Positions 1,393 through 42,562 of a stretch of 64,000 bases of DNA are shown in pieces. The notes beneath the pieces were generated by a model. That model was not told the origin of the DNA, made no database searches, and saw nothing but the letters and a program-made list of their open reading frames with translations. The DNA comes from Rummeliibacillus pycnus (GTDB taxonomy: Bacteria > Bacillota > Bacilli > Bacillales_A > Planococcaceae), in assembly GCF_002884495.1 (NCBI RefSeq), contig NZ_KZ614145.1, positions 992,001-1,056,000 on the forward strand. Direction: 5' to 3'. The position numbers and the translations under genes were made by a program. Within the stretch, counting starts at the first letter, position 1; each line of letters begins with the position of its first letter.

Positions 1393-3648
1393 TTAATGAA
1401 CTGTAATTTTCAAAGGCTTACTTTTAACCCCATTTTTATTTGTAACATAGACCGTTAAGATCGTATTTTTGGATTGGTTACCCATGTATAAGAAAAAATG
1501 CCCTTTTGTATCTACGCGATCAGAAGCTATTATTGTTCTGCCTTTATATAGAGAAATTTTGGAATTAAGCTCTGCTTCACCACGTAAATATTTGGTGGTG
1601 GTATAAACTTTATTGACAATTGGTTGAGCTGTTGTTTTCGATTGTTTGACAATGACCTCTTTCGCATTACTGATGTTCCCAACTGAATCTTCAGCCGTAA
1701 TTTTTAAGATAGAACCTACTGCTTGAAAAGGAAGCGTAATTCGGAAACTACCATCTTTCCCAGTTAAGCCTTTGACAATTGTTTTCGAGTCATTTTTAAC
1801 TGTTATGGTAGTATTAGCGGTTGCTTTTCCTGAAATAGTATGACTACTTGTTGTAACAGCAGTTACGGAAGGTGTTGCTATCTTTTTGGCTTTAGGTGTA
1901 TGAACCTTAGCTTCTATACCTTCAGACAAATTTCCGACGGCATCTTTAGTTTTTAGTTTGATTTGGTAATCTGTATCTGGTGTTAAATTTTTAAAAGAAT
2001 AATCGTCATTTTTTGTAGTGCCAACCAGTTGATTATTTACATAAAGTTGTACTCCAATAAAATCTTCATCATTTGGATTATTCCAGGTTAGTTTCAGAGA
2101 GTCGATTTTAAGGTCTTTTATTTTTAAATAATCAATATCACTAGGAGGTGTTACATCTTTTAACGTTTTAAATGTTTGTTGGATACCATCTGAACTATCA
2201 CCATTTGTATTAATTACTTTTAACAATACATTGTATTTCTGATTTGGATCTAAATTCTTTATGGTATAAGAAGAATGTGTCGTATATTTTATAATCTTGT
2301 CATTGATGATGATCGCCACTTTAGCAAAAGTTTTATCATCAGGAATTGTAAACGTGAGTGTAGCTTTATGATCTTTTATCTTCAAAATAGAAACATTCTT
2401 CAACTCTCTCGGTTTTGTAATAGAAAAACTCGGTAATTGTGCAACTCCATATCCGAATTTAATATCTTTCCCTTTTGTCCCTAAATCTAACGCGCTACTT
2501 CGTAATTTTTGAATTAGCTCACTTGATGTGCTAAATGGATATCGTTCTTTTAAAATAGCCAGTAATCCCGTTACATGAGGTGCAGCAAAAGAGGTACCCG
2601 ATGCATAGAATAACTCACCTTTACTATTTATTGTAAGAACATAATCACCAGGTGCTGCAAAGTCAACTGAAGTACCCGTATTAGAGAAGTTACTGCATTT
2701 TTTGTCTTTTCCAATCGAGCTAACAGCTATAACATTACTATATCGCGCAGGATAAGTAGGCTTATCTGAATTCCCATCATTACCTGCAGAAGCAACAATC
2801 ATAATACCTGCTTTGACAGCTTGATCAATGGCTTTTTTTAATGCTGGATCATCTTCATAAATACTAGAGGAGATATTGATCAAATCCATTTTGTGCTTAA
2901 TTGCCCAGTTTAATGCTTCAATTACTTCTGCAATACGACCATCTCTTGTCCCATCAGCATATTTTAAAGAATAAATCTGAACGCCAGGAGCGACACCAAT
3001 CACATCAGAAACTGAATAATTAAATGATGTTCCACCAATTTGAGCGCCTAAAACAGCCGCAACACTTGTACCATGTCCTTCTCCATAATTTCCTCTATCC
3101 AAAACATCCGATTCATCGATGTTTTTTGTTTTGGGATCATCCTTTACAAAAGACACTCGCTTCACGACATTTGGTAAATCCGGAATGGCATTTACACCCG
3201 TATCGATTAATGCAACTTTTACCCCTTTACCAAAATAACCTTTTTTCCAATAGGTCGGTGCCTTTACGTAATCCAAATTCCAATAGGATTTAAAGGTTGG
3301 AATTTGCTCTTTGGTACTCACGATTGATTCCGTTAATATGGTCATTTTTTTTGTGTTCTTATTGATAAATTCAATATTCCTATTCTTTTTCAGCTGTTCA
3401 AATTGTTTCTTCGTAATGGAAGCTCTAACCATTTCAACTTGAGATAAGACTTTATCTACTTTTTTGACATTTTTTAAGATAAATCTTTTTCCTATATCAT
3501 TTTTGTAGGATATCATTACATCTATAGTTTGATCAGTCGCAACTTTAGCACTTACATTCGAAGCTTGCAACAAAACAAAGCAACCAGTTAAACAGAGGGC
3601 AGATAGCAATTTTGTTTTTAGATTGTTCGATAAATGCCAATTAATCAA
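1393..3648 (-). CDS. Secreted subtilisin-family (S8) serine protease with FN3 and Ig-like domains
   Basis: About 751 residues from a TTG at 3648, chosen because GGAGAG lies 9 bases upstream and the product then begins with a clean signal peptide (basic start, LLSALCLTGCFVLLQA core, ASNVSA cleavage region). A propeptide-like segment (about 35-110) precedes the S8 domain (about 125-400) with the triad Asp149 (ALIDTGVN), His192 (GHGTSVAA), Ser353 (SGTSFAAPHV) and oxyanion Asn290 (SAGNDGN). Two fibronectin III-like domains (about 405-585) and two short Ig-like (Big_6-type) domains (about 590-751) follow. The same Ig-like type ends the corrinoid-operon barrel protein at 8064-9635. It is transcribed alone, between terminators. 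Probable role: extracellular protein degradation; the C-terminal modules may attach it to the cell surface. Confidence 0.9.
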   Translation of the reverse strand: MINWHLSNNLKTKLLSALCLTGCFVLLQASNVSAKVATDQTIDVMISYKNDIGKRFILKNVKKVDKVLSQVEMVRASITKKQFEQLKKNRNIEFINKNTKKMTILTESIVSTKEQIPTFKSYWNLDYVKAPTYWKKGYFGKGVKVALIDTGVNAIPDLPNVVKRVSFVKDDPKTKNIDESDVLDRGNYGEGHGTSVAAVLGAQIGGTSFNYSVSDVIGVAPGVQIYSLKYADGTRDGRIAEVIEALNWAIKHKMDLINISSSIYEDDPALKKAIDQAVKAGIMIVASAGNDGNSDKPTYPARYSNVIAVSSIGKDKKCSNFSNTGTSVDFAAPGDYVLTINSKGELFYASGTSFAAPHVTGLLAILKERYPFSTSSELIQKLRSSALDLGTKGKDIKFGYGVAQLPSFSITKPRELKNVSILKIKDHKATLTFTIPDDKTFAKVAIIINDKIIKYTTHSSYTIKNLDPNQKYNVLLKVINTNGDSSDGIQQTFKTLKDVTPPSDIDYLKIKDLKIDSLKLTWNNPNDEDFIGVQLYVNNQLVGTTKNDDYSFKNLTPDTDYQIKLKTKDAVGNLSEGIEAKVHTPKAKKIATPSVTAVTTSSHTISGKATANTTITVKNDSKTIVKGLTGKDGSFRITLPFQAVGSILKITAEDSVGNISNAKEVIVKQSKTTAQPIVNKVYTTTKYLRGEAELNSKISLYKGRTIIASDRVDTKGHFFLYMGNQSKNTILTVYVTNKNGVKSKPLKITVH

Positions 3649-3743
3649 ACCATCACTCTCCATTTCTATATAAACGATCACGTTAAACTTATATCAATAT
3701 AATAAAAGATCTATTTCTACTATATTATGCAACAAATTATAGA

Positions 3744-3790
3744 AAAAAGACTGTTTATATGTATTTCAACATAAAAAACAGTCTTTTTCT
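3744..3790 (-). terminator. Intrinsic terminator of the ECF/corrinoid operon
   Basis: Minus strand AGAAAAAGACTGTT ... AACAGTCTTTTTTC, placed 5 bases after the stop codon of the S-component gene. It closes the riboswitch-controlled operon that starts near 9985. Confidence 0.85.
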
Positions 3791-3794
3791 ACTA

Positions 3795-4520
3795 TTATTC
3801 TGAGATTCCATATTTTATTTTTATTCGAGTTAATTTTTCACCAATTGGTCTAGCGAGTAGGAGTAAAAAGAAAATATTTGATAGAGCATACATTGCTGTA
3901 AAGGGTAAGGATGTACCCATAGCAACAAAGTAACGGCGCCATGTAAAGGCACTTTCATACGATATAACTGTCCAAATATCCATGATCAATGAAAATAGAA
4001 TGCCACTAAAGAATCCGTATAGTATTAAAGGGATTTTATGATTCATCCATCCGCTCCGTCCAACTATTCCAGCAATATAACCTAATAGACCCCAAGTAAA
4101 CATTTGGAATGGAGTCCAAGGTCCTTGGCCAAATAGTACATTTGATGCAACAGCTGTAGATGCTCCTGTGAGAAATCCAGCAGCTGGTCCAAAGGCAAAA
4201 CCCGTTATTGCAACAATTGCGGTTACGGGTTTAAAAGCTGGTGCCCACACAAATGCAGCACGACCAGCTACGGCAATTGCAGACATAACTGCAATAATTA
4301 AAATTTCCCTAGGCATTGGTTTCTTACGCTCAAAAGAAATAAGAAAAGGGACACATGCAAAGATGACTATAATCAATGACAAAATATTATATCTTCGGTC
4401 TTCCCATAATGTAACCCCCATTAGTAAACAAAGCGGGATAATGAGTAAGACGATGATAGAAGTCAATATAAATTTCTTACTTACGATTTTATGAGCTGTT
4501 TTTTCTGTTGTCTCTTGCAC
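3795..4520 (-). CDS. ECF transporter substrate-binding (S) component, probable corrinoid specificity
   Basis: A 241-residue integral membrane protein with about six hydrophobic segments. The core ILIIAVMSAIAVAGRAAF and AFGPAAGFLTGASTAVASNVLFGQGPWTPFQM resembles the CbrT-like ECF S-component group. The S component gives an ECF importer its substrate specificity. It is the last gene of a cobalamin-riboswitch operon and overlaps the ATPase gene by 40 bp, so a cobalamin or cobinamide substrate is the natural inference; the sequence alone does not prove it. Start is a GTG with an AAGGATG site about 10 bases upstream. It lies next to its own EcfA and EcfT genes, so the module is dedicated rather than shared. 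Confidence 0.8.
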   Translation of the reverse strand: MQETTEKTAHKIVSKKFILTSIIVLLIIPLCLLMGVTLWEDRRYNILSLIIVIFACVPFLISFERKKPMPREILIIAVMSAIAVAGRAAFVWAPAFKPVTAIVAITGFAFGPAAGFLTGASTAVASNVLFGQGPWTPFQMFTWGLLGYIAGIVGRSGWMNHKIPLILYGFFSGILFSLIMDIWTVISYESAFTWRRYFVAMGTSLPFTAMYALSNIFFLLLLARPIGEKLTRIKIKYGISE

Positions 4521-6172
4521 AGTTCAATCACATCCTTACTGGTAATAGCATTTGAAAATAGGTGGCGGGACATTCGATGAGCAGCAGTTGTGTAAAAATG
4601 GTTTCCACTATAGAATGCTCTTGTATTATCTGAAGAAACAATATTGCCATCAAAAAATAGTGCACATCGATCCGAATTACTAGCAGAAAACTCAATATCA
4701 TGTGTCACCATTACAATCGCCACTTTTTGTTCTTTTAGACATCTTAAAATTTCTGCTAAAACCTCTTTTGAAGCTGCATCCATACCTTTCGTTGGTTCAT
4801 CTAAGAAAAGAATTCGGGGGTGCAATAGTAAAATTTTTGCAAGAGCAACCTTTTGCTGTTCTCCGCCACTTAAATCATACGGATGTTGTTCCAATAAATT
4901 TTCTAAATTGAAAGTGTGAATTATAGAATTGATTTCATCTATTACTTGTTGTTTTGTTATATTCAGTGTTTCGACCACTGATTCTAACTCTTGTTTCACA
5001 GTTTTTGAAACTAGAATCGTTTGTGGGTCTTGTGGTAAAACTGCTAAACATTCACGATATAACTTGCTATTAGAAATTTTCTTTAAAGGTTTACCATCAA
5101 GTAAAACCTTTCCCCTATACGGTTTATATAAACCTGACATGACGCCAAGTGAAGTCGTTTTCCCTGTTCCGTTCCCACCTAAAATACTTATTAATTCCCC
5201 TGGATAAACTTGTAAAGAAAAGCCTCTTAAAATATCTATTCCATTTTTTTCGTATCGGAACCAAGTATCATGGATATCAAGAACAGGTTTTCCAATATCC
5301 TCTTTAAATTCGCTTGGTAGAATTGGTTCTTGATCGGCTTTAAAATTCTCTGATAACCATCTTCGTCCATCACGAATCGTTAGGGGAGCCTCTTTTTGAC
5401 TTTTTAAAGCGTGATGAACACGAATTGGAGTTGGTAACCCTAGCAACATAGGATGATCTTGTGAAACATGCTGTAAATCATAGGCAACTTGTTTTGGCGT
5501 CCCATTACAAATAATTCCCCCTTGATCCATCACCACAATGCGATCAGCAATTGAATAGACTTCCTCTAATCGATGTTCGACCAAAATAATCGTTAAACCA
5601 AGATCCTTATTTAACTTATGTAAAGTTGAGATGAATTCACCAGCCGCAATTGGATCAAGTTGTGATGTTGGTTCATCTAAAATAAGTAATTTTGGTTGCA
5701 TGGCCATAATAGCTGCAAGATTTAGTAGTTGTTTCTGACCACCTGAAAGTTCCATAGTATTTTTTCTAAACCAATTTTGAATACCAAAGAAATTAGCCAT
5801 TTCAGCTACTTTTCTACGAATGGTCATGGTGTCATAACCTAGGTTTTCTAAACCAAAGGCTAATTCATGCCAAACTTTATCTGTGACAATTTGGTTTTCA
5901 GGGTTTTGCATAACGAAGCCAATCTCAGATGCAGCCACTCTTTCAGAAAGTTCGTTTAGTATGGTACCGTTATAATAGATTGCACCAGATGAAACACCAT
6001 GCGGGGTAATTTCTCTTTTTAAATGTTTTAATAAAGTACTTTTCCCACAGCCAGATGTACCACAAATCACAACGAATTCACCTGCTTCAATGGCTAAATC
6101 AATTTCTTTTAGCACAGGTTTTGGTGCAAGTGGATAGCTGAAGGTTAGTTGTTTGATATCAACAAACGCCAT
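4481..6172 (-). CDS. ECF transporter ATPase with two fused ABC domains (EcfA-EcfA')
   Basis: 563 residues made of two complete nucleotide-binding domains. Domain 1 (about 1-240) has Walker A GTSGCGKST, signature LSGGQKQ and Walker B LLILDEPTS. Domain 2 (about 285-545) has GGNGTGKTT, LSGGEQQ and ILFLDEPTK. ECF ATPases are usually two separate subunits; here they are fused, as in several cobalamin/thiamine-related ECF modules. It would energise uptake through the adjacent EcfT and S component. The ATG at 6172 is preferred because GGGAGG lies 7 bases upstream. It overlaps ecfT by 28 bp and the S gene by 40 bp, so translation is tightly coupled. Confidence 0.9.
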   Translation of the reverse strand: MAFVDIKQLTFSYPLAPKPVLKEIDLAIEAGEFVVICGTSGCGKSTLLKHLKREITPHGVSSGAIYYNGTILNELSERVAASEIGFVMQNPENQIVTDKVWHELAFGLENLGYDTMTIRRKVAEMANFFGIQNWFRKNTMELSGGQKQLLNLAAIMAMQPKLLILDEPTSQLDPIAAGEFISTLHKLNKDLGLTIILVEHRLEEVYSIADRIVVMDQGGIICNGTPKQVAYDLQHVSQDHPMLLGLPTPIRVHHALKSQKEAPLTIRDGRRWLSENFKADQEPILPSEFKEDIGKPVLDIHDTWFRYEKNGIDILRGFSLQVYPGELISILGGNGTGKTTSLGVMSGLYKPYRGKVLLDGKPLKKISNSKLYRECLAVLPQDPQTILVSKTVKQELESVVETLNITKQQVIDEINSIIHTFNLENLLEQHPYDLSGGEQQKVALAKILLLHPRILFLDEPTKGMDAASKEVLAEILRCLKEQKVAIVMVTHDIEFSASNSDRCALFFDGNIVSSDNTRAFYSGNHFYTTAAHRMSRHLFSNAITSKDVIELCKRQQKKQLIKS

Positions 6173-7026
6173 TTGAATGCCTCCCAAAGTTCAATGATGA
6201 TGGGTATCGCTAATAACAAAGTATAGGAACCATACAAAAGAATAGAAATCGGCTGAAATGTTAGTTCACTAAAAGTTGGATAAAAATAATAATTGTTATA
6301 TCCTAAGAAACTCCCCAATACACTTATCGCTGTAAGGAGTAGCAAGATTATTAACATAAATCCATCTCTCTTTTCAAAAGTAAACAATGAAAAAGTGGAA
6401 CGCCTTGGTAAACCGTAGCCTCTTGCTTTCATTGAATCAGCAGTTTCAATTGCATTTTCCAATGCCCATGTAATAAGTATTGAAATGATACGATTCCCAC
6501 ATTTAATACGATGGAACAAATTACCTGAGGTCACATCCATCCCAATTGTTTTTTGCGCATGTGCGATTACGCCTATTTGATGCTTAAAACGTGGAACTAA
6601 ACGTAATGTCAAAGAAATAATCAGCGCGAAAGCTGGTGAAATCTTTCCAAATAAATATAGAAACTTATCTGAACTCATCAAGACATTATAACAGCCAAAC
6701 CAAAAAATAACAGAGCAAATCATAATAGACATCGCAAACCCATATGTAATTGCTTCTATTGTAATAGGGTTATTATCAATATATAAAATGATTTTTTCCC
6801 CATCATGGCTAATTAAAGGATTAATAATGGCCGCGATAAAGATCATGGGGATAATCCATTTCAATCCTCTTAAAAAAGCTTTCTTGTTTACTTGTAAACT
6901 TAAAATAATAGACAGTAGTAGAGAAATCATTAAGTAGACGGGATGCATATAAAACATTGTCAATCCCACTGCTAAGATGAAATAACTAAAAAGAACAATC
7001 GGATGATAGTTTGCAAAAGCTTTCAA
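6145..7026 (-). CDS. ECF transporter transmembrane coupling subunit (EcfT)
   Basis: 293 residues, hydrophobic, with about five to six membrane segments. It shows the EcfT signature ADSMKARGYG (Ala-Arg-Gly motif) in the cytoplasmic helix that contacts the ATPase, and a second coupling-type region SKFLYLFGKISPAFA. The start is TTG at 7026 with AAAGGAGG nine bases upstream. It links the fused ATPase (next gene, overlapping) to the S component. Its upstream neighbour, 16 bases away, is the DUF4430 lipoprotein. Confidence 0.88.
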   Translation of the reverse strand: MKAFANYHPIVLFSYFILAVGLTMFYMHPVYLMISLLLSIILSLQVNKKAFLRGLKWIIPMIFIAAIINPLISHDGEKIILYIDNNPITIEAITYGFAMSIMICSVIFWFGCYNVLMSSDKFLYLFGKISPAFALIISLTLRLVPRFKHQIGVIAHAQKTIGMDVTSGNLFHRIKCGNRIISILITWALENAIETADSMKARGYGLPRRSTFSLFTFEKRDGFMLIILLLLTAISVLGSFLGYNNYYFYPTFSELTFQPISILLYGSYTLLLAIPIIIELWEAFKWRLLISNN

Positions 7027-7042
7027 TGTTTTCTTCCTCCTT

Positions 7043-7981
7043 TTACTTCAAACCGATGTCCTTACCTTCGTTTAGAGAGTACTGCCAAACAATTTGATCG
7101 CCATCTTTCACCTTATAACCGTCACAGCCAACTCCAGGATTTTTACCATTTACACTATACATCCAACCAGATAATGGTCCTGCATTTTTTTCATACAAAT
7201 GGTTGATTCCTTGAATATAAACCGATCCATATTTATTTGCTCCAGCCCCATCATATTCAAATTGAACGTGATGCTCTTTTAATGCTCGTAATGTAATACT
7301 CCACGCTGAATCATTATCACTACGTATTTCATATTTCGAGGTAGCGATAATTGTTCCACTTTTTGGTACATATTTTTCGTTCTGTAATGGTTTTTCAAGT
7401 TTAGCGTAATTTTCTTCTTTCAAAAGTGTATCTACCCGTACTGAAATCGTAACGTATTTTTTCTTTTCTTTAACGATTTTATTGTCGGTAGAATTTGAAC
7501 GATAGATTGATTTGGCAGAGTTGGCTTTCTTAGATGCTACTGTTTCTTTTTTTGATGGTGTTTCTGTTTTTTTGCTAATATTCTTACTAGAATTTTGCTC
7601 TTTTAATGTTAGATTTGTTGTTTTCTTTTCTTGATTCGTATCTTTGTTTGAAGTACGGATCTCTTTATTTGCTGTATGCAATTCTTTCTCTTGATTATTT
7701 GTTGATTTAGTTACTACTTGATTTGATTCATCCGATTTTTTGACAGTTTCTTTTGAATTTGTTTTTTGATCAACCTGTTGATCAGATTCAGTATTTTTCT
7801 TATTCGTCTGATGATCTTGCTTTTTTTTATCATTTACAGGAATAACTTTCTCACTTGAATCATCAACACTTTTTTCATCTGCATTTTGATTATTGTATTG
7901 TTCAACTGTTTGGATTTTACAACCAGCAAGGCAGAAAATCGCAATTATTAACGTAAGGATATAAAAATGTACTTTCTTCAC
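7043..7981 (-). CDS. DUF4430 (transcobalamin C-terminal-like) lipoprotein
   Basis: About 312 residues. It starts with a lipoprotein signal peptide (MKKVHFYILTLIIAIF) and lipobox LAGC, giving lipid-modified Cys21. Residues about 22-175 are a very polar Ser/Thr/Lys/Gln/Asn-rich linker, suited to spanning the wall. Residues about 180-312 match DUF4430, with the signature SGWMYSVNGK ... GYKVKDGDQIVWQY. That domain has the same fold class as the C-terminal beta domain of vertebrate transcobalamin and intrinsic factor (established family knowledge as I recall it). The start is GTG at 7981, eight bases after GGAGG; the GTG at 7990 overlaps that site. Genes on either side are the barrel protein and EcfT, all under a cobalamin riboswitch. 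Probable role: membrane-anchored corrinoid capture and handover to the importer (inference). Confidence 0.85.
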   Translation of the reverse strand: MKKVHFYILTLIIAIFCLAGCKIQTVEQYNNQNADEKSVDDSSEKVIPVNDKKKQDHQTNKKNTESDQQVDQKTNSKETVKKSDESNQVVTKSTNNQEKELHTANKEIRTSNKDTNQEKKTTNLTLKEQNSSKNISKKTETPSKKETVASKKANSAKSIYRSNSTDNKIVKEKKKYVTISVRVDTLLKEENYAKLEKPLQNEKYVPKSGTIIATSKYEIRSDNDSAWSITLRALKEHHVQFEYDGAGANKYGSVYIQGINHLYEKNAGPLSGWMYSVNGKNPGVGCDGYKVKDGDQIVWQYSLNEGKDIGLK

Positions 7982-8008
7982 TGATGACACCTCCGTATAG
8001 ATGGCAAT

Positions 8009-8037
8009 AGGGTGTTAGAAATTGGCTCTAACACCCT
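8009..8037 (-). other. Stem-loop between barrel-protein and DUF4430 genes
   Basis: An 11-bp perfect inverted repeat AGGGTGTTAGA / TCTAACACCCT with a 7-nt loop. On the minus strand it is followed by ATTGCCATC rather than a U-tract, so it is a poor terminator. It may instead stabilise the upstream message or partly attenuate the downstream genes. Confidence 0.6.
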
Positions 8038-8063
8038 GGGATAAAAGTTATGTTTGTGTGAAC

Positions 8064-9635
8064 TTATTTTGATTTAACAGTAATTGTTTTAATAGCACTT
8101 TTATTCTTAGCTGCATCTTTTACATAAACTGTTAGTTTTGTACCTGTTTTTTGCTTCTTGATAGATAAAGAAAATTTACCTTTAGATGAGACTTTACCTT
8201 TTTGTATTACTTTTTTATTTTTCACAACATAAACTGTAGAATGCGCTTCTGCTGTACCAATCAATTTCGTCGAATTTTTTGTTACTTTTTTAACAATTGG
8301 GGCCTTTGGAGCTGTTTTATCAACAACTTTTACGTATACAGTTTTACTGTTGTTTTTTCCTAGATCTGTTGCAACAATTTTTAAAGTTGTACCAGCTTTT
8401 TGTTTGTTGATTTTTACTGAATATTCACCTTTTAAATTTGCTTTCACACGACCAATTATTTTAGAACCGTTTTTCACTGTAATTGTCGCATATGATTCTG
8501 TTTTGCCAGTTACAGTAGTTTTGTTGTCCGCAATAGCTTTTACAGTTAGTTTTACAGGTGCTTTAGTGTCAAATGTAAGATTTTCTGCTTTAGCATCTGA
8601 CATATTATAAAATGATGTTTTTTTAAGTTCAAACCGATCATACATTGCTAATGCTCGGTTGCCTTGAGGTGTAGCATATGCAGGATCTACAGCTTTTTGA
8701 TTTGCACTCATCTTAAATCCACCAGATTTTGAATCGACTGCAGTGAGTAAGTTCTGAATCGTCCAATAACCACCTGTTTTCACAAATCCATCAACAGATT
8801 TAGGATCAGAATTCAATGCTAGAAGACTCATTATAACTTGTGAAATCGAAGCGGCATTTTCACCTTTTAGCCAATCAGAATAAATACCTGCTTTACCGTT
8901 CAATTGTTTTTGTAAATATGAAAGAGCTTTAGTAACAGAAGTTGATACTTTATCTTGTTTCATGTATGGGGCTAAAGCAGTCACAACCATTGCAGTTGTA
9001 TCAGGATCTGCATCTGCACCAATCGCCCATCCGTATCCATTATCCTTTGTTTGAGCAGTTAATAGTTCATCAATAATGGAATCTCTAGTTATATTTTTAT
9101 ATTTATCTTGATTTATTGTGTAATTATTTGCATCCAAAGCTAATAAAACAGCAGAAGTTTGAGTAAAAGTACGATAATCAGTTTTTGTTTCATTATAAGA
9201 GTCTAGCATTTTATCAACTAAATTGACCCCAGCAACATTTGTTGGATCTTTACCAATAGAGCTTAAAGCTAAAATAATATTGGCATAGTCAGAATAAGAT
9301 TTTCCGATATCTCCATTTTTTTCTTTAACGGTTTTTACGATATTATTGAAATATTGTTCATAATAATTCTTCGCTACTGGATAATGAGAACGTGCTAAGT
9401 TTGTAACGACATATTCATTACCTAATGTTGGATTAGGTGTGTTACTTAATAAAAATGCACTTGAATTCTTCAGAACATTTTTATAGCTAACATCTTGACC
9501 AACCATTTTGGATGTTGTTGTTTGTGCACTTTCCTCTGCATGAGCAACAAGGGATGCTGGAAGTTGAGATGCTACTAATAAGCTTGCTAATGAGAGTGGT
9601 ACTACCCATTTTTTTAATGATTTGTTTGTGTACAT
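8064..9635 (-). CDS. Secreted alpha/alpha-barrel (prenyltransferase/squalene-cyclase repeat) protein with two Ig-like domains; candidate corrinoid-binding protein
   Basis: 523 residues from the ATG at 9635 (GGAGG eight bases upstream; a longer frame to 9707 is non-coding leader). A signal peptide is cleaved after VAHA (about residue 33). Residues about 48-340 form helical repeats with DYANIILALSSIG, TQTSAVLLALDA, PDTTAMVVTALAPY and SQVIMSLLALN, typical of the terpenoid-cyclase/prenyltransferase alpha-alpha toroid. Intrinsic factor and transcobalamin use the same fold for their N-terminal domain, including a comparable DT.AM...AL helix. Residues about 360-438 and 441-523 are two Big_6-type Ig-like domains. 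It is the first gene after a cobalamin riboswitch and precedes the DUF4430 lipoprotein. No isoprenoid substrate is implied by context; corrinoid binding is inferred. Confidence 0.8.
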   Translation of the reverse strand: MYTNKSLKKWVVPLSLASLLVASQLPASLVAHAEESAQTTTSKMVGQDVSYKNVLKNSSAFLLSNTPNPTLGNEYVVTNLARSHYPVAKNYYEQYFNNIVKTVKEKNGDIGKSYSDYANIILALSSIGKDPTNVAGVNLVDKMLDSYNETKTDYRTFTQTSAVLLALDANNYTINQDKYKNITRDSIIDELLTAQTKDNGYGWAIGADADPDTTAMVVTALAPYMKQDKVSTSVTKALSYLQKQLNGKAGIYSDWLKGENAASISQVIMSLLALNSDPKSVDGFVKTGGYWTIQNLLTAVDSKSGGFKMSANQKAVDPAYATPQGNRALAMYDRFELKKTSFYNMSDAKAENLTFDTKAPVKLTVKAIADNKTTVTGKTESYATITVKNGSKIIGRVKANLKGEYSVKINKQKAGTTLKIVATDLGKNNSKTVYVKVVDKTAPKAPIVKKVTKNSTKLIGTAEAHSTVYVVKNKKVIQKGKVSSKGKFSLSIKKQKTGTKLTVYVKDAAKNKSAIKTITVKSK

Positions 9636-9641
9636 GAAAAA

Positions 9642-9693
9642 TACCTCCATTCTTTTGACAATCAGAGATGAACTGTCTTCTGGAATGGAGGTA
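9642..9693 (-). promoter_or_regulatory. Hairpin sequestering the ribosome binding site of the barrel-protein gene
   Basis: On the minus strand TACCTCCATTC (9693-9683) pairs perfectly over 11 bp with GAATGGAGGTA (9652-9642), which contains the GGAGG site of the gene starting at 9635. The enclosed sequence also holds a GACA/TGTC extension. This would block initiation when folded. Confidence 0.7.
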
Positions 9694-9703
9694 ATCGAAA
9701 TCA

Positions 9704-9738
9704 CCATAAAAAATCTTTACATAGATACCTATGTAAAG
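9704..9738 (-). terminator. Intrinsic terminator in the cobalamin-riboswitch leader
   Basis: Minus strand CTTTACATAG-GTAT-CTATGTAAAG (10-bp stem, 4-nt loop) followed by ATTTTTTATG. It lies between the riboswitch core and the first gene and is probably its transcriptional expression platform. Confidence 0.8.
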
Positions 9739-9821
9739 AGAGTGGACGAGAAATGTATGAATCAGTATATGTATGCATTTCAGTATTCCGCACCTCCCCC
9801 TCGAAGATCAGAAACGATTGA

Positions 9822-9985
9822 TAAAAGCAGGTCTCCTGGCTTATGTGTTTACGAATTTTCGTACCTTCCCAGCTAATTTATCAGCCAGTGGTCTTTACGA
9901 TTTCTACACACTTACAGTAGCGGGGCTGCATCGGATTTTCACCGATTTCCCTATTATCCCAAACAACGTATTGGGCACTTTTATC
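9822..9985 (-). promoter_or_regulatory. Cobalamin riboswitch controlling the barrel/DUF4430/ECF operon
   Basis: The minus strand carries the B12 box AGCCAGGAGACCTGC (9842-9828), the GGGAA and GATGCAGCCCCGCTACTG core segments, and a closing GTGCCC near 9976. This is the adenosylcobalamin-type architecture seen in the other two copies in this window. Binding should repress the downstream operon (8064-9635 to 3795-4520). Confidence 0.95.
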
Positions 9986-10082
9986 TTTTTATATGTAATT
10001 GTCATTTCCCATAGTATTTCATATTCAATCATACATGTAAATGATTTTTTTACTTTTCAAATAAATATTGATGTAAACGCAT

Positions 10083-41797: not shown

Positions 41798-41897
41798 AAA
41801 AACTAGATAATTCAGAAAATACCCAAATGCAAAAAACAAATGGCATTCTTCATTTACAGTCTTTACCTTTCCCTCCGAAAAGTATCGTACTTCCATT

Positions 41898-42064
41898 TTT
41901 AAAAGCAGGTTTCCTGGCTCACACTTCATTTTACTCTGATCTCTTCCCAGTCACTTATGACCAGTGAGTAAGTATCATTTCATCCATGTTACAGTAGCGG
42001 GGGCTGCATCGGATTCTAACCGATTTCCCTATTATCCCAATGTAATGTTACAAGGGCACTTTTA
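41898..42064 (-). promoter_or_regulatory. Cobalamin riboswitch controlling the cbiW-cobQ operon
   Basis: Minus strand B12 box AGCCAGGAAACCTGC (41919-41905), core segments GGGAAATCGG and GATGCAGCCCCCGCTACTG, closing GTGCCC near 42060. The promoter should lie in 42065-42140, where I see only weak candidates. Confidence 0.95.
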
Positions 42065-42275
42065 AAAAATATGTAATTGTATAATATAGTAAAATTTTAA
42101 ACTGACATAATCATATACTATTTTCTTCTAATTTAAAATAATTTTTTTATAAATGACTCATTCTAAAATACAGAAGTTTTTAATTTTCGATCGTTTTTGC
42201 TACTTATTTCACAAAATTCACTCTCTTTCTGCAATCTTTTATTTCAAAAATTTTTTTGTTAAAAATATAGTAGTA

Positions 42276-42304: not shown

Positions 42305-42330
42305 CGTATTCTAACAATTCAATAAACTTT

Positions 42331-42485
42331 ATGGTGCTAAATTATTTTATTTAGCTGAAAAGGGAAGTTTGTGAAAATCAAACGCGGTCCCGCCACTGTA
42401 AAGACGAGTTATGCTTTTAGATGCCACTGTCAATGATGGGAAGGCAAAGCATAATGATGACGCTAAGCCAGGAGACCTGCCATAT
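42331..42485 (+). promoter_or_regulatory. Cobalamin riboswitch controlling cbiMNQO
   Basis: GCGGTCCCGCCACTGT core, GATGGGAAGGC segment, ACGCTAAGCCAGGAGACCTGCC B12-box region (42461-42481; shown conserved part AGCCAGGAGACCTGC). Plus strand, divergent from the cob-operon riboswitch about 270 bp away. Confidence 0.95.
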
Positions 42486-42562
42486 TGTGTGAATTATTAT
42501 CAGCCTACGAGGATAGGTGTGAGAATAGCTATGCTTTGATCGCATTGTTTTACTATTCGTCT

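What the first reader, a model, noticed from the sequence alone, without database searches (positions are those of the whole stretch)
3795..9985. Candidate split intrinsic-factor/transcobalamin-like corrinoid capture system with its own ECF importer
One cobalamin-riboswitch operon encodes, in order: a secreted alpha/alpha-toroid protein, a membrane-anchored lipoprotein ending in a DUF4430 domain, EcfT, a fused EcfAA', and an S component. Vertebrate intrinsic factor and transcobalamin are a single chain of alpha6/alpha6 barrel plus a DUF4430-like beta domain that clamp cobalamin between them. Here the two halves are separate, one soluble or wall-bound through Ig-like domains and one lipid-anchored by a long polar tether. 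A testable model is that the two halves meet around a corrinoid at the cell surface and pass it to the ECF transporter. Fold assignments and riboswitch are seen; the clamp model is inference.
Basis: partly seen in the sequence, partly recalled or inferred. Interest (0 to 1): 0.85.

Follow-up and report, generated by a model that had tools for sequence, protein, structure and literature searches.

The report
Split transcobalamin-like B12 capture operon
A bacterium seems to make, as two separate surface proteins, the two halves that in animals form one vitamin B12 carrier, and to feed what they catch into a B12 importer encoded by the same B12-controlled operon; the parts list is solid, the clamp itself is untested.

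Summary
On the minus strand a cobalamin riboswitch (9809-9997) precedes a secreted alpha/alpha-toroid protein, a DUF4430 lipoprotein, EcfT, fused EcfAA' and an S component. The S component is related to CbrT, a proven cobalamin/cobinamide S component (6FNP, E=8.5e-20). The barrel model is a toroid like transcobalamin/intrinsic factor (Z about 19), though cyclases (Z 23) and some sugar enzymes (Z 20) score higher; the cyclase DXDD motif is in 0 of 55 relatives. The DUF4430 profile's best PDB hit is transcobalamin-1 (E=0.0028, weak). In 101 genomes, all 24 with a strong barrel match have DUF4430; 36 of 42 DUF4430 clusters follow a cobalamin riboswitch. Elsewhere both halves are one chain in the same operon slot; two such fusions have the two genes of one split locus as next-nearest relatives. 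Human transcobalamin made as two pieces assembles only with cobalamin (PMC5599065). Toroid plus transcobalamin-like domains in CbiO/CbiQ operons were predicted as B12 scavengers in 2007 (PMC1796856): this is a two-chain variant, not a new kind, in a host that also has B12 synthesis genes.

The parts
9809..9997 (-). Cobalamin riboswitch aptamer (RF00174)
   Evidence: 126.7 bits, E=1.8e-31, full model
9714..9739 (-). stem-loop followed by T-run, possible terminator of the riboswitch expression platform
   Evidence: sites of this type not above chance: 5 against 4.7; fold z=-3.65, segment picked by eye; function inferred
8064..9635 (-). secreted alpha/alpha-toroid protein, 523 aa: signal-peptide-like N-terminus, toroid about residues 48-338, two Big_6 Ig-like domains about 370-523
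8601..9524 (-). toroid domain as delimited by the iterated profile
8009..8037 (-). 12-bp stem-loop between barrel and DUF4430 genes, no T-run (possible processing or differential-expression hairpin)
   Evidence: z=-2.89 for 7985-8064, segment picked by eye
7043..7981 (-). lipoprotein, 312 aa: lipobox, about 149-residue K/N/S/T-rich stretch, C-terminal DUF4430 (transcobalamin-like beta-grasp) domain
7049..7387 (-). DUF4430 domain
6145..7026 (-). EcfT (CbiQ family)
   Evidence: PF02361 2e-8
4481..6187 (-). fused EcfA-EcfA' ATPase, 568 aa; overlaps both neighbours
   Evidence: TIGR04520 8.1e-113
3795..4520 (-). ECF S component, CbrT relative, with an extra N-terminal pair of predicted TM helices (18-36, 45-63)
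3739..3792 (-). strong stem-loop after the S component, likely end of the operon
   Evidence: z=-4.63 for 3715-3800, segment picked by eye

Best explanation
A surface capture and import system for corrinoids, switched on when cell cobalamin is low (riboswitch; inferred from family knowledge). The secreted toroid protein and the tethered DUF4430 lipoprotein each offer one face of a corrinoid site and close on it from both sides, as the two domains of transcobalamin do; the lipoprotein, held near the membrane, passes the corrinoid to the CbrT-like S component, and EcfT/EcfAA' drive import. Shown: genes, riboswitch, folds, homology of the S component to a proven cobalamin carrier, linkage of the two halves. 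Inferred: corrinoid binding, two-chain clamping, hand-over.
For: Riboswitch and gene order. S-component profile hits 6fnp_A at 8.5e-20, next family 0.011; 6FNP is the ECF-CbrT deposit, and ECF-CbrT transports cobalamin and cobinamide (PMC5997447, passages); the chain is labelled only 'Membrane protein' and I take it to be CbrT. Barrel model against PDB: intrinsic factor 3kq4 Z 19.2, transcobalamin 7qbg Z 19.1, haptocorrin 4kki Z 18.8; transcobalamin is the first toroid-bearing chain among the 50 Foldseek rows shown. A natural barrel-DUF4430 fusion from a relative (L035) gives transcobalamin, intrinsic factor and haptocorrin as the first 15 of the 50 rows shown, E 5.1e-10 to 4.8e-8, then 1.6e-5 for cyclases. 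Linkage: strong barrel match (E below 1e-15) in 24 of 101 genomes, all 24 with DUF4430, Fisher p 2e-19 uncorrected for kinship; 61 of 66 strong barrel places lie within 6 kb of a DUF4430 place. 36 of 42 DUF4430 clusters have a same-strand riboswitch within 8.2 kb upstream. Separate barrel and DUF4430 genes within 700 bases of each other in 56 of 80 named loci, EcfT in 76 of 80 (found with the DUF4430 domain as query). One-chain barrel-DUF4430 proteins lie just upstream of EcfT in L119, L143, L145; apart from each other, both domains of L119 and L143 have the two separate genes of locus L111 as nearest rows. Separately made human transcobalamin alpha and beta domains co-elute only with cyanocobalamin, and intrinsic factor is said to behave alike (PMC5599065, passages).
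Against: No binding or complex data; no complex model could be run. The fused model does not superpose on holo-transcobalamin as a whole (Foldseek rmsd about 20 A, TMq 0.36-0.42), so it does not show the closed clamp, and its 50 VIA rows hold cyclases, sugar enzymes and prenyltransferases but no transcobalamin. By Z the window barrel is nearer to squalene-hopene cyclase (23.2), cellobiose 2-epimerase (20.2) and glucuronyl hydrolase (20.0) than to transcobalamin, and the barrel sequence profile finds cyclases, not transcobalamin. The DUF4430 hit to transcobalamin-1 is weak. Five of 66 strong barrel places have no DUF4430 within 6 kb; four of these (G008, G043, G044, G059) stand 260-360 bases behind a cobalamin riboswitch, so the toroid may act without a neighbouring DUF4430. 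DUF4430 occurs without barrel or nearby riboswitch in 4 of 28 genomes, and no barrel was seen in 14 of 80 named loci (some contigs are short). The host has B12 synthesis genes in this window and a BtuFCD-like operon with CbiZ elsewhere, so the need for a second importer is not obvious.
Confidence: 0.62

Rival explanations
1. Relay rather than clamp: the toroid protein and the DUF4430 lipoprotein each bind corrinoid on their own and pass it along (outer scavenger to membrane-near receptor to S component) without closing on one molecule together.
For: Human transcobalamin beta domain alone was crystallised with cobalamin and cobinamide (PMC5599065). Barrel genes without a nearby DUF4430 stand behind cobalamin riboswitches at four places. 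In the 14 system genomes that have chains with both domains, DUF4430 proteins without a barrel occur as well; stand-alone DUF4430 domains directly before EcfT are largely clustered apart from the others (13 changes against a shuffled mean of 52.3; few columns, poorly resolved). DUF4430 beside a short S-like protein without barrel in L031, L039, L066, L067.
Against: Separate barrel and DUF4430 genes lie side by side in 56 of 80 loci and are found as one chain in the same slot in others.
Confidence: 0.28
2. The main cargo is not finished cobalamin but an incomplete or foreign corrinoid (cobinamide, pseudo-B12) for remodelling by this B12 producer. This can be true together with clamp or relay.
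For: Host carries CbiD and CbiC (window), and elsewhere CobT, a BtuD-type ATPase fused to CbiZ, and CbiB. ECF-CbrT also carries cobinamide and transcobalamin beta binds it. 7 of the 10 system genomes without a two-domain chain have CbiD, 0 of the 14 with one (the 10 are kin in three genera).
Against: Nothing in the sequences tested here separates these cargoes.
Confidence: 0.3
3. The toroid protein is a secreted enzyme (terpene-cyclase-like or sugar-active) unrelated to capture.
For: Best structural Z and sequence-profile hits are squalene-hopene/drimenyl cyclases, and sugar enzymes score as high as transcobalamin.
Against: DXDD in 0 of 55 barrels; the fourth position is mostly Met or Ile. Riboswitch control and DUF4430 linkage. 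Sugar-enzyme active sites were not checked.
Confidence: 0.05
4. The toroid protein is an adhesin or biofilm protein; the operon link is incidental.
For: Big_6 repeats and hits to a biofilm-associated protein.
Against: The sequence hits cover only the Ig-like tail (query 349-508); toroid and riboswitch linkage is conserved.
Confidence: 0.03

Closest known systems
Vertebrate transcobalamin / intrinsic factor / haptocorrin
   Same: alpha/alpha toroid plus transcobalamin-type beta-grasp (DUF4430/SLBB) domain; fold similarity found for the barrel and, in a fused relative, for a chain with both domains
   Different: two separate chains, one lipid-anchored; Ig-like tail; beside an ECF importer instead of endocytosis; corrinoid binding untested
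Bacterial transcobalamin-like SLBB proteins of Burroughs et al. 2007 (PMC1796856; section 7 part 1 and passages read)
   Same: extracellular SLBB with toroids, operons with CbiO-like ATPase and CbiQ-like protein, proposed B12 scavenging and surface complexes
   Different: there the toroid is described as fused to SLBB; here no chain holds both; this host has B12 synthesis genes, whereas hosts there usually lacked key ones; S component and riboswitch are not mentioned in the parts I read
ECF-CbrT (Lactobacillus delbrueckii, PMC5997447; passages read)
   Same: CbrT-type S component with EcfT and two ATPase halves
   Different: own ECF genes in the operon, ATPases fused, S component with an extra N-terminal TM pair, dedicated surface proteins; CbrT there shares a module with other S components
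BtuFCD
   Same: corrinoid import under a cobalamin riboswitch; a BtuFCD-like operon with CbiZ lies elsewhere in this genome
   Different: unrelated binder (Peripla_BP_2) and permease (FecCD)

Membership tests
Transcobalamin / intrinsic factor / haptocorrin | alpha/alpha toroid domain | tested here: met
   AF2 model pLDDT 85.4; Z 19 to IF/TC. Which toroid class is nearest is inconclusive: cyclases score Z 23, some sugar enzymes Z 20
Transcobalamin / intrinsic factor / haptocorrin | transcobalamin-type beta domain | tested here: met
   PF14478 E=1e-16; profile of 69 domains has transcobalamin-1 4kki as best PDB hit, E=0.0028 (weak)
Transcobalamin / intrinsic factor / haptocorrin | both domains in one chain | tested here: not met
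   two genes, 8064-9635 and 7043-7981
Transcobalamin / intrinsic factor / haptocorrin | binds cobalamin between the domains | not testable with these tools
   no complex modelling or assay
Bacterial transcobalamin-like SLBB scavengers (2007 prediction) | extracellular DUF4430/SLBB protein in an operon with CbiO-like and CbiQ-like genes | tested here: met
Bacterial transcobalamin-like SLBB scavengers (2007 prediction) | toroid partner | tested here: met
   separate gene
Bacterial transcobalamin-like SLBB scavengers (2007 prediction) | host usually lacks key B12 synthesis genes (a tendency, not a definition) | tested here: not met
   CbiD, CbiC and CbiM in the window, CobT and CbiB elsewhere
ECF transporter with dedicated module (group I) | EcfT, EcfA, EcfA' and S component in one operon | tested here: met
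CbrT S components | sequence relationship to CbrT | tested here: met
   6fnp_A E=8.5e-20; next PDB family 4hzu 0.011
CbrT S components | transports cobalamin/cobinamide | not testable with these tools
   needs uptake assay
Class II terpene cyclases | DXDD motif (motif recalled, not from a call) | tested here: not met
   0 of 55 barrels

The most novel reading that the evidence does not exclude
A naturally two-chain transcobalamin whose halves meet only around a corrinoid, so that assembly itself is the signal to dock on a modified CbrT S component (its extra N-terminal TM pair being the docking site); fusion and fission of the two halves across Bacillota then replay the origin of the animal carrier.
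Probability: 0.3. Interest if true: 0.82.

Novelty: new variant of a known kind. Interest (0 to 1): 0.6.

Why it matters
How Gram-positive bacteria catch corrinoids at the surface for ECF importers is not settled in the papers I saw. If true, this gives a bacterial, genetically tractable two-chain version of intrinsic factor, a test of how a clamp that in transcobalamin holds cobalamin at sub-picomolar strength (PMC5599065) could release it for import, and a handle on the proposed bacterial origin of the animal carriers (PMC1796856).

Tried and rejected
Disfavoured: enzyme reading of the toroid (no DXDD); adhesin reading (sequence matches only in the Ig-like tail). The barrel sequence profile did not list transcobalamin even at E up to 5, so the toroid-transcobalamin link rests on structure. 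The VIA list of the fused model shows no transcobalamin within its 50 rows while Foldseek ranks them first; the closed two-domain arrangement was not reproduced.

Side lead, not adopted: a secreted subtilase with fn3 and Big_6 repeats (1393-3681, -) follows the S component in 10 of 12 testable loci of the type without two-domain chains (L063's contig ends before it, absent in L060 and L065). Since the animal carriers are said to release B12 only after proteolysis (PMC11107200, passage), a release protease was considered. Against: the next gene (438-1181) is conserved beside it; in G046 (K. massiliensis) and G026 (V. soli) protease and that gene lie on other contigs than the operon; and the same-genus genome G003, with no DUF4430 and no barrel match genome-wide and none of the operon's genes between symporter and protease, keeps a protease ORF without the Ig-like tail. 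So family synteny may explain most of it.

Literature searches in the held library: DUF4430 (6 papers), transcobalamin-like with bacteria (3), CbrT with ECF transporter and cobalamin (8), animal carriers (1), riboswitch with ECF and salvage (0), Rummeliibacillus with cobalamin (0), prenyltransferase/DUF4430/cobalamin (47, 8 listed), transcobalamin/ECF/SLBB (2), intrinsic factor with bacterial homologues (6). Nothing in the listings or passages that I saw describes a two-chain toroid/DUF4430 system; the library is partial and I read few texts, so this is not proof that none is in print. Papers: PMC1796856 section 7 part 1 and passages; PMC5997447, PMC5599065, PMC11107200, PMC4350170, PMC2667541, PMC1949818 passages only; the rest search listings.

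Counts: barrel alignment A3 holds 55 of 57 matches (two L048 fragments dropped), DUF4430 alignment A4 69 of 81 (short matches dropped). The riboswitch linkage used 146 of 148 listed places (one below cut-off and one on an unrelated contig left out) and 42 clusters that I merged by hand; distance is to the first DUF4430 domain. One search used 66 of 69 barrel places (three weak ones, E about 1e-6, dropped). Gene calls in relatives are mechanical ORFs. Hairpin segments were picked by eye.
Full report
WHAT IS THERE. The window lies in a 3.85 Mb genome. Its genus is most likely Rummeliibacillus: the same-genus genome G002 has a contig of the same length (2,980,184) and the same locus as NZ_VCBL01000001.1, Rummeliibacillus suwonensis. 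The minus strand carries a full cobalamin riboswitch (9809-9997), a stem-loop with T-run (9714-9739; sites of this type are not above chance in the stretch, 5 against 4.7), the barrel gene, a short gap with a 12-bp hairpin without T-run (8009-8037), the DUF4430 lipoprotein gene, EcfT, fused EcfAA' and the S component, the last three overlapping. A strong hairpin follows the S component (3739-3792).

THE TWO HALVES. The barrel protein (523 aa) matches only Big_6 in Pfam. An AlphaFold2 model from nine relatives has mean pLDDT 85.4, helices from 51 to 336 and strands from 374 to 519. VIA-align gives squalene-hopene cyclase 2sqc Z 23.2 (265 residues, 3.3 A), cellobiose 2-epimerase Z 20.2, glucuronyl hydrolase Z 20.0, intrinsic factor 3kq4 Z 19.2 (249, 3.3 A), transcobalamin 7qbg Z 19.1 (256, 3.3 A), haptocorrin Z 18.8, Rab prenyltransferase Z 18.7: a toroid, with the animal carriers among its near relatives but not alone or first. 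In Foldseek, which also weighs sequence, transcobalamin is the first toroid-bearing chain of the 50 rows shown. It is unlikely to be a class II cyclase: DXDD is present in 0 of 55 aligned barrels, while Asp 212 and Thr 214 are each conserved in 54 of 55. The DUF4430 protein has a lipobox, a polar stretch of about 149 residues and the domain at its end. A profile of 69 such domains has transcobalamin-1 as best PDB hit, E=0.0028, with transcobalamin-2 further down: weak alone, but in line with the published placement of this domain (PMC1796856).

THE NATURAL FUSION. Relatives carry chains with barrel and DUF4430 close together. One such unit (L035, 447 aa, 16 residues between the two matches) was modelled (pLDDT 84.0, pTM 0.67). 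The first 15 PDB rows by Foldseek are all transcobalamin, intrinsic factor or haptocorrin (E 5.1e-10 to 4.8e-8), followed by cyclases from 1.6e-5. The alignments are 435 to 468 columns long, but rmsd near 20 A shows that the mutual placing of the domains differs from the ligand-closed crystal form. VIA-align, which weighs geometry, lists no animal carrier within its 50 rows for this model. So the domain pairing is transcobalamin's; the closed clamp is not shown.

THE IMPORTER. The S-component profile (21 sequences) hits 6fnp_A at 8.5e-20 and the next family only at 0.011. 6FNP is the ECF-CbrT deposit; that complex moved radiolabelled cobalamin and cobinamide in liposomes (PMC5997447, passages). 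The chain is labelled only 'Membrane protein'; I take it to be CbrT. The match starts at profile position 59 and at residue 8 of the PDB chain; the extra N-terminal stretch, with two predicted TM helices in the window protein (18-36, 45-63), is present in all 21 aligned S components and has no counterpart in that chain. It may be where the surface proteins dock (inference).

LINKAGE. DUF4430 is found in 28 of 101 genomes (window genome and 100 relatives). The barrel profile finds 24 at E below 1e-15, all among the 28, plus three weak hits (E about 1e-6) in genomes without DUF4430. The four with DUF4430 but no barrel (G063, G075, G086, G095) have no nearby cobalamin riboswitch; in them DUF4430 lies by a shorter S-like protein. 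Of 42 DUF4430 clusters 36 have a same-strand riboswitch within 8.2 kb upstream; the six misses are those four, one cluster of G044 and one of G059 near a contig end. Of 66 strong barrel places 61 lie within 6 kb of a DUF4430 place. The five others cut both ways: four (G008:C18, G043:C11, G044:C1, G059:C27) stand 260-360 bases behind a cobalamin riboswitch, which ties the toroid itself to corrinoids but shows it without a DUF4430 neighbour; the fifth (G062:C1:4975464) has neither nearby. Ten of the 24 system genomes have no chain holding both domains; 14 have at least one. In the named set of 80 loci (best 80 of 559 confirmed, scan limited; found with the DUF4430 domain, so not neutral), 56 show separate barrel and DUF4430 genes within 700 bases of each other (6 of them with a two-domain chain besides), 9 only two-domain chains, 1 a non-adjacent pair, 14 no barrel; 76 of 80 have EcfT. 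Titles include Kurthia, Viridibacillus, Lysinibacillus, Solibacillus, Sporosarcina and many Clostridia.

ONE CHAIN OR TWO IN THE SAME SLOT. In L119, L143 and L145 a single barrel-DUF4430 protein, with hydrophobic stretches between the domains as read from the sequence, sits just before EcfT; L033 has a DUF4430-barrel chain there, and L131 has a barrel-DUF4430 chain elsewhere in its locus. In quick trees the barrel and the DUF4430 domain of L119 and L143 have each other and then the two separate genes of L111 as nearest rows; the four chains L119, L143, L145, L131 (labelled by hand) need two changes on the barrel tree, and starred branches force two. This is the best genomic evidence that the separate genes act together. 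The DUF4430 tree has few columns and is poorly resolved.

WHY A TWO-CHAIN CLAMP IS PLAUSIBLE. Human transcobalamin domains made separately co-elute only when cyanocobalamin is present, and the paper says the same of intrinsic factor (PMC5599065, passages).

PRODUCER OR SCAVENGER. This window itself holds CbiD, CbiC and, behind a riboswitch of its own, CbiM with three genes that read like CbiN, CbiQ and CbiO (not scanned); two more cobalamin riboswitches lie there. The genome's other three riboswitches precede CobT; a Peripla_BP_2/FecCD/ABC-CbiZ/CbiB operon with genes that read like further cob genes (not scanned); and a ribonucleotide reductase large-chain gene. So the host can probably make corrinoids and also import them by a BtuFCD-like route; completeness of the pathway was not checked. 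Among system genomes CbiD is found in 7 of the 10 without a two-domain chain and in 0 of the 14 with one (Fisher p 3.5e-4). The ten are kin in three genera, so the p value overstates it, yet the pattern suggests that the plain two-chain form suits producers and the large two-domain proteins suit auxotrophs.

VERDICT. Corrinoid capture and import: very likely (about 0.9, my estimate). Membership in the transcobalamin family as a single-chain carrier: not met; it may work like one, in two chains.

Noticed in passing
window 1393-3681 (-): Secreted S8 subtilase with fn3 and Big_6 repeats like the barrel's tail follows the operon in 10 of 12 testable loci of this type; in same-genus G003, where none of the operon's genes lies between the symporter and the protease (L151), a 408-aa protease ORF persists without the Ig-like tail.
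   Followed up: partly
window 3795-4520 (-), first ~65 residues: CbrT-like S component carries an extra N-terminal stretch with two predicted TM helices, present in 21 of 21 aligned homologues and lacking in 6fnp_A.
   Followed up: partly
G008:C18:188219-189106, G043:C11:59302-60189, G059:C27:422-1498 (all -), G044:C1:369122-370165 (+): Barrel genes without a DUF4430 place within 6 kb, each 260-360 bases behind a cobalamin riboswitch.
   Followed up: partly
window 41887-42078 (-) and 42315-42498 (+): Two divergent cobalamin riboswitches, one before the corrin synthesis genes, one before CbiM and neighbours.
   Followed up: no
L150 (G000:C1:2624000-2633000), riboswitch at 2632464-2632642: Cobalamin riboswitch upstream of a ribonucleotide reductase large-chain gene (Ribonuc_red_lgC) and a 346-aa gene that reads like the small chain.
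   Followed up: no
L149:5027-6502 (-): BtuD-type ATPase fused to CbiZ (adenosylcobinamide amidohydrolase) in the host's BtuFCD-like operon.
   Followed up: no
L031, L039, L066, L067: Small DUF4430 proteins beside a short S-like ECF protein without barrel or nearby cobalamin riboswitch; cargo unknown.
   Followed up: partly
L048:11084-12879 (Kurthia senegalensis): Barrel gene lies in two overlapping ORFs, apparently frameshifted, and the DUF4430 ORF is short at its start.
   Followed up: no
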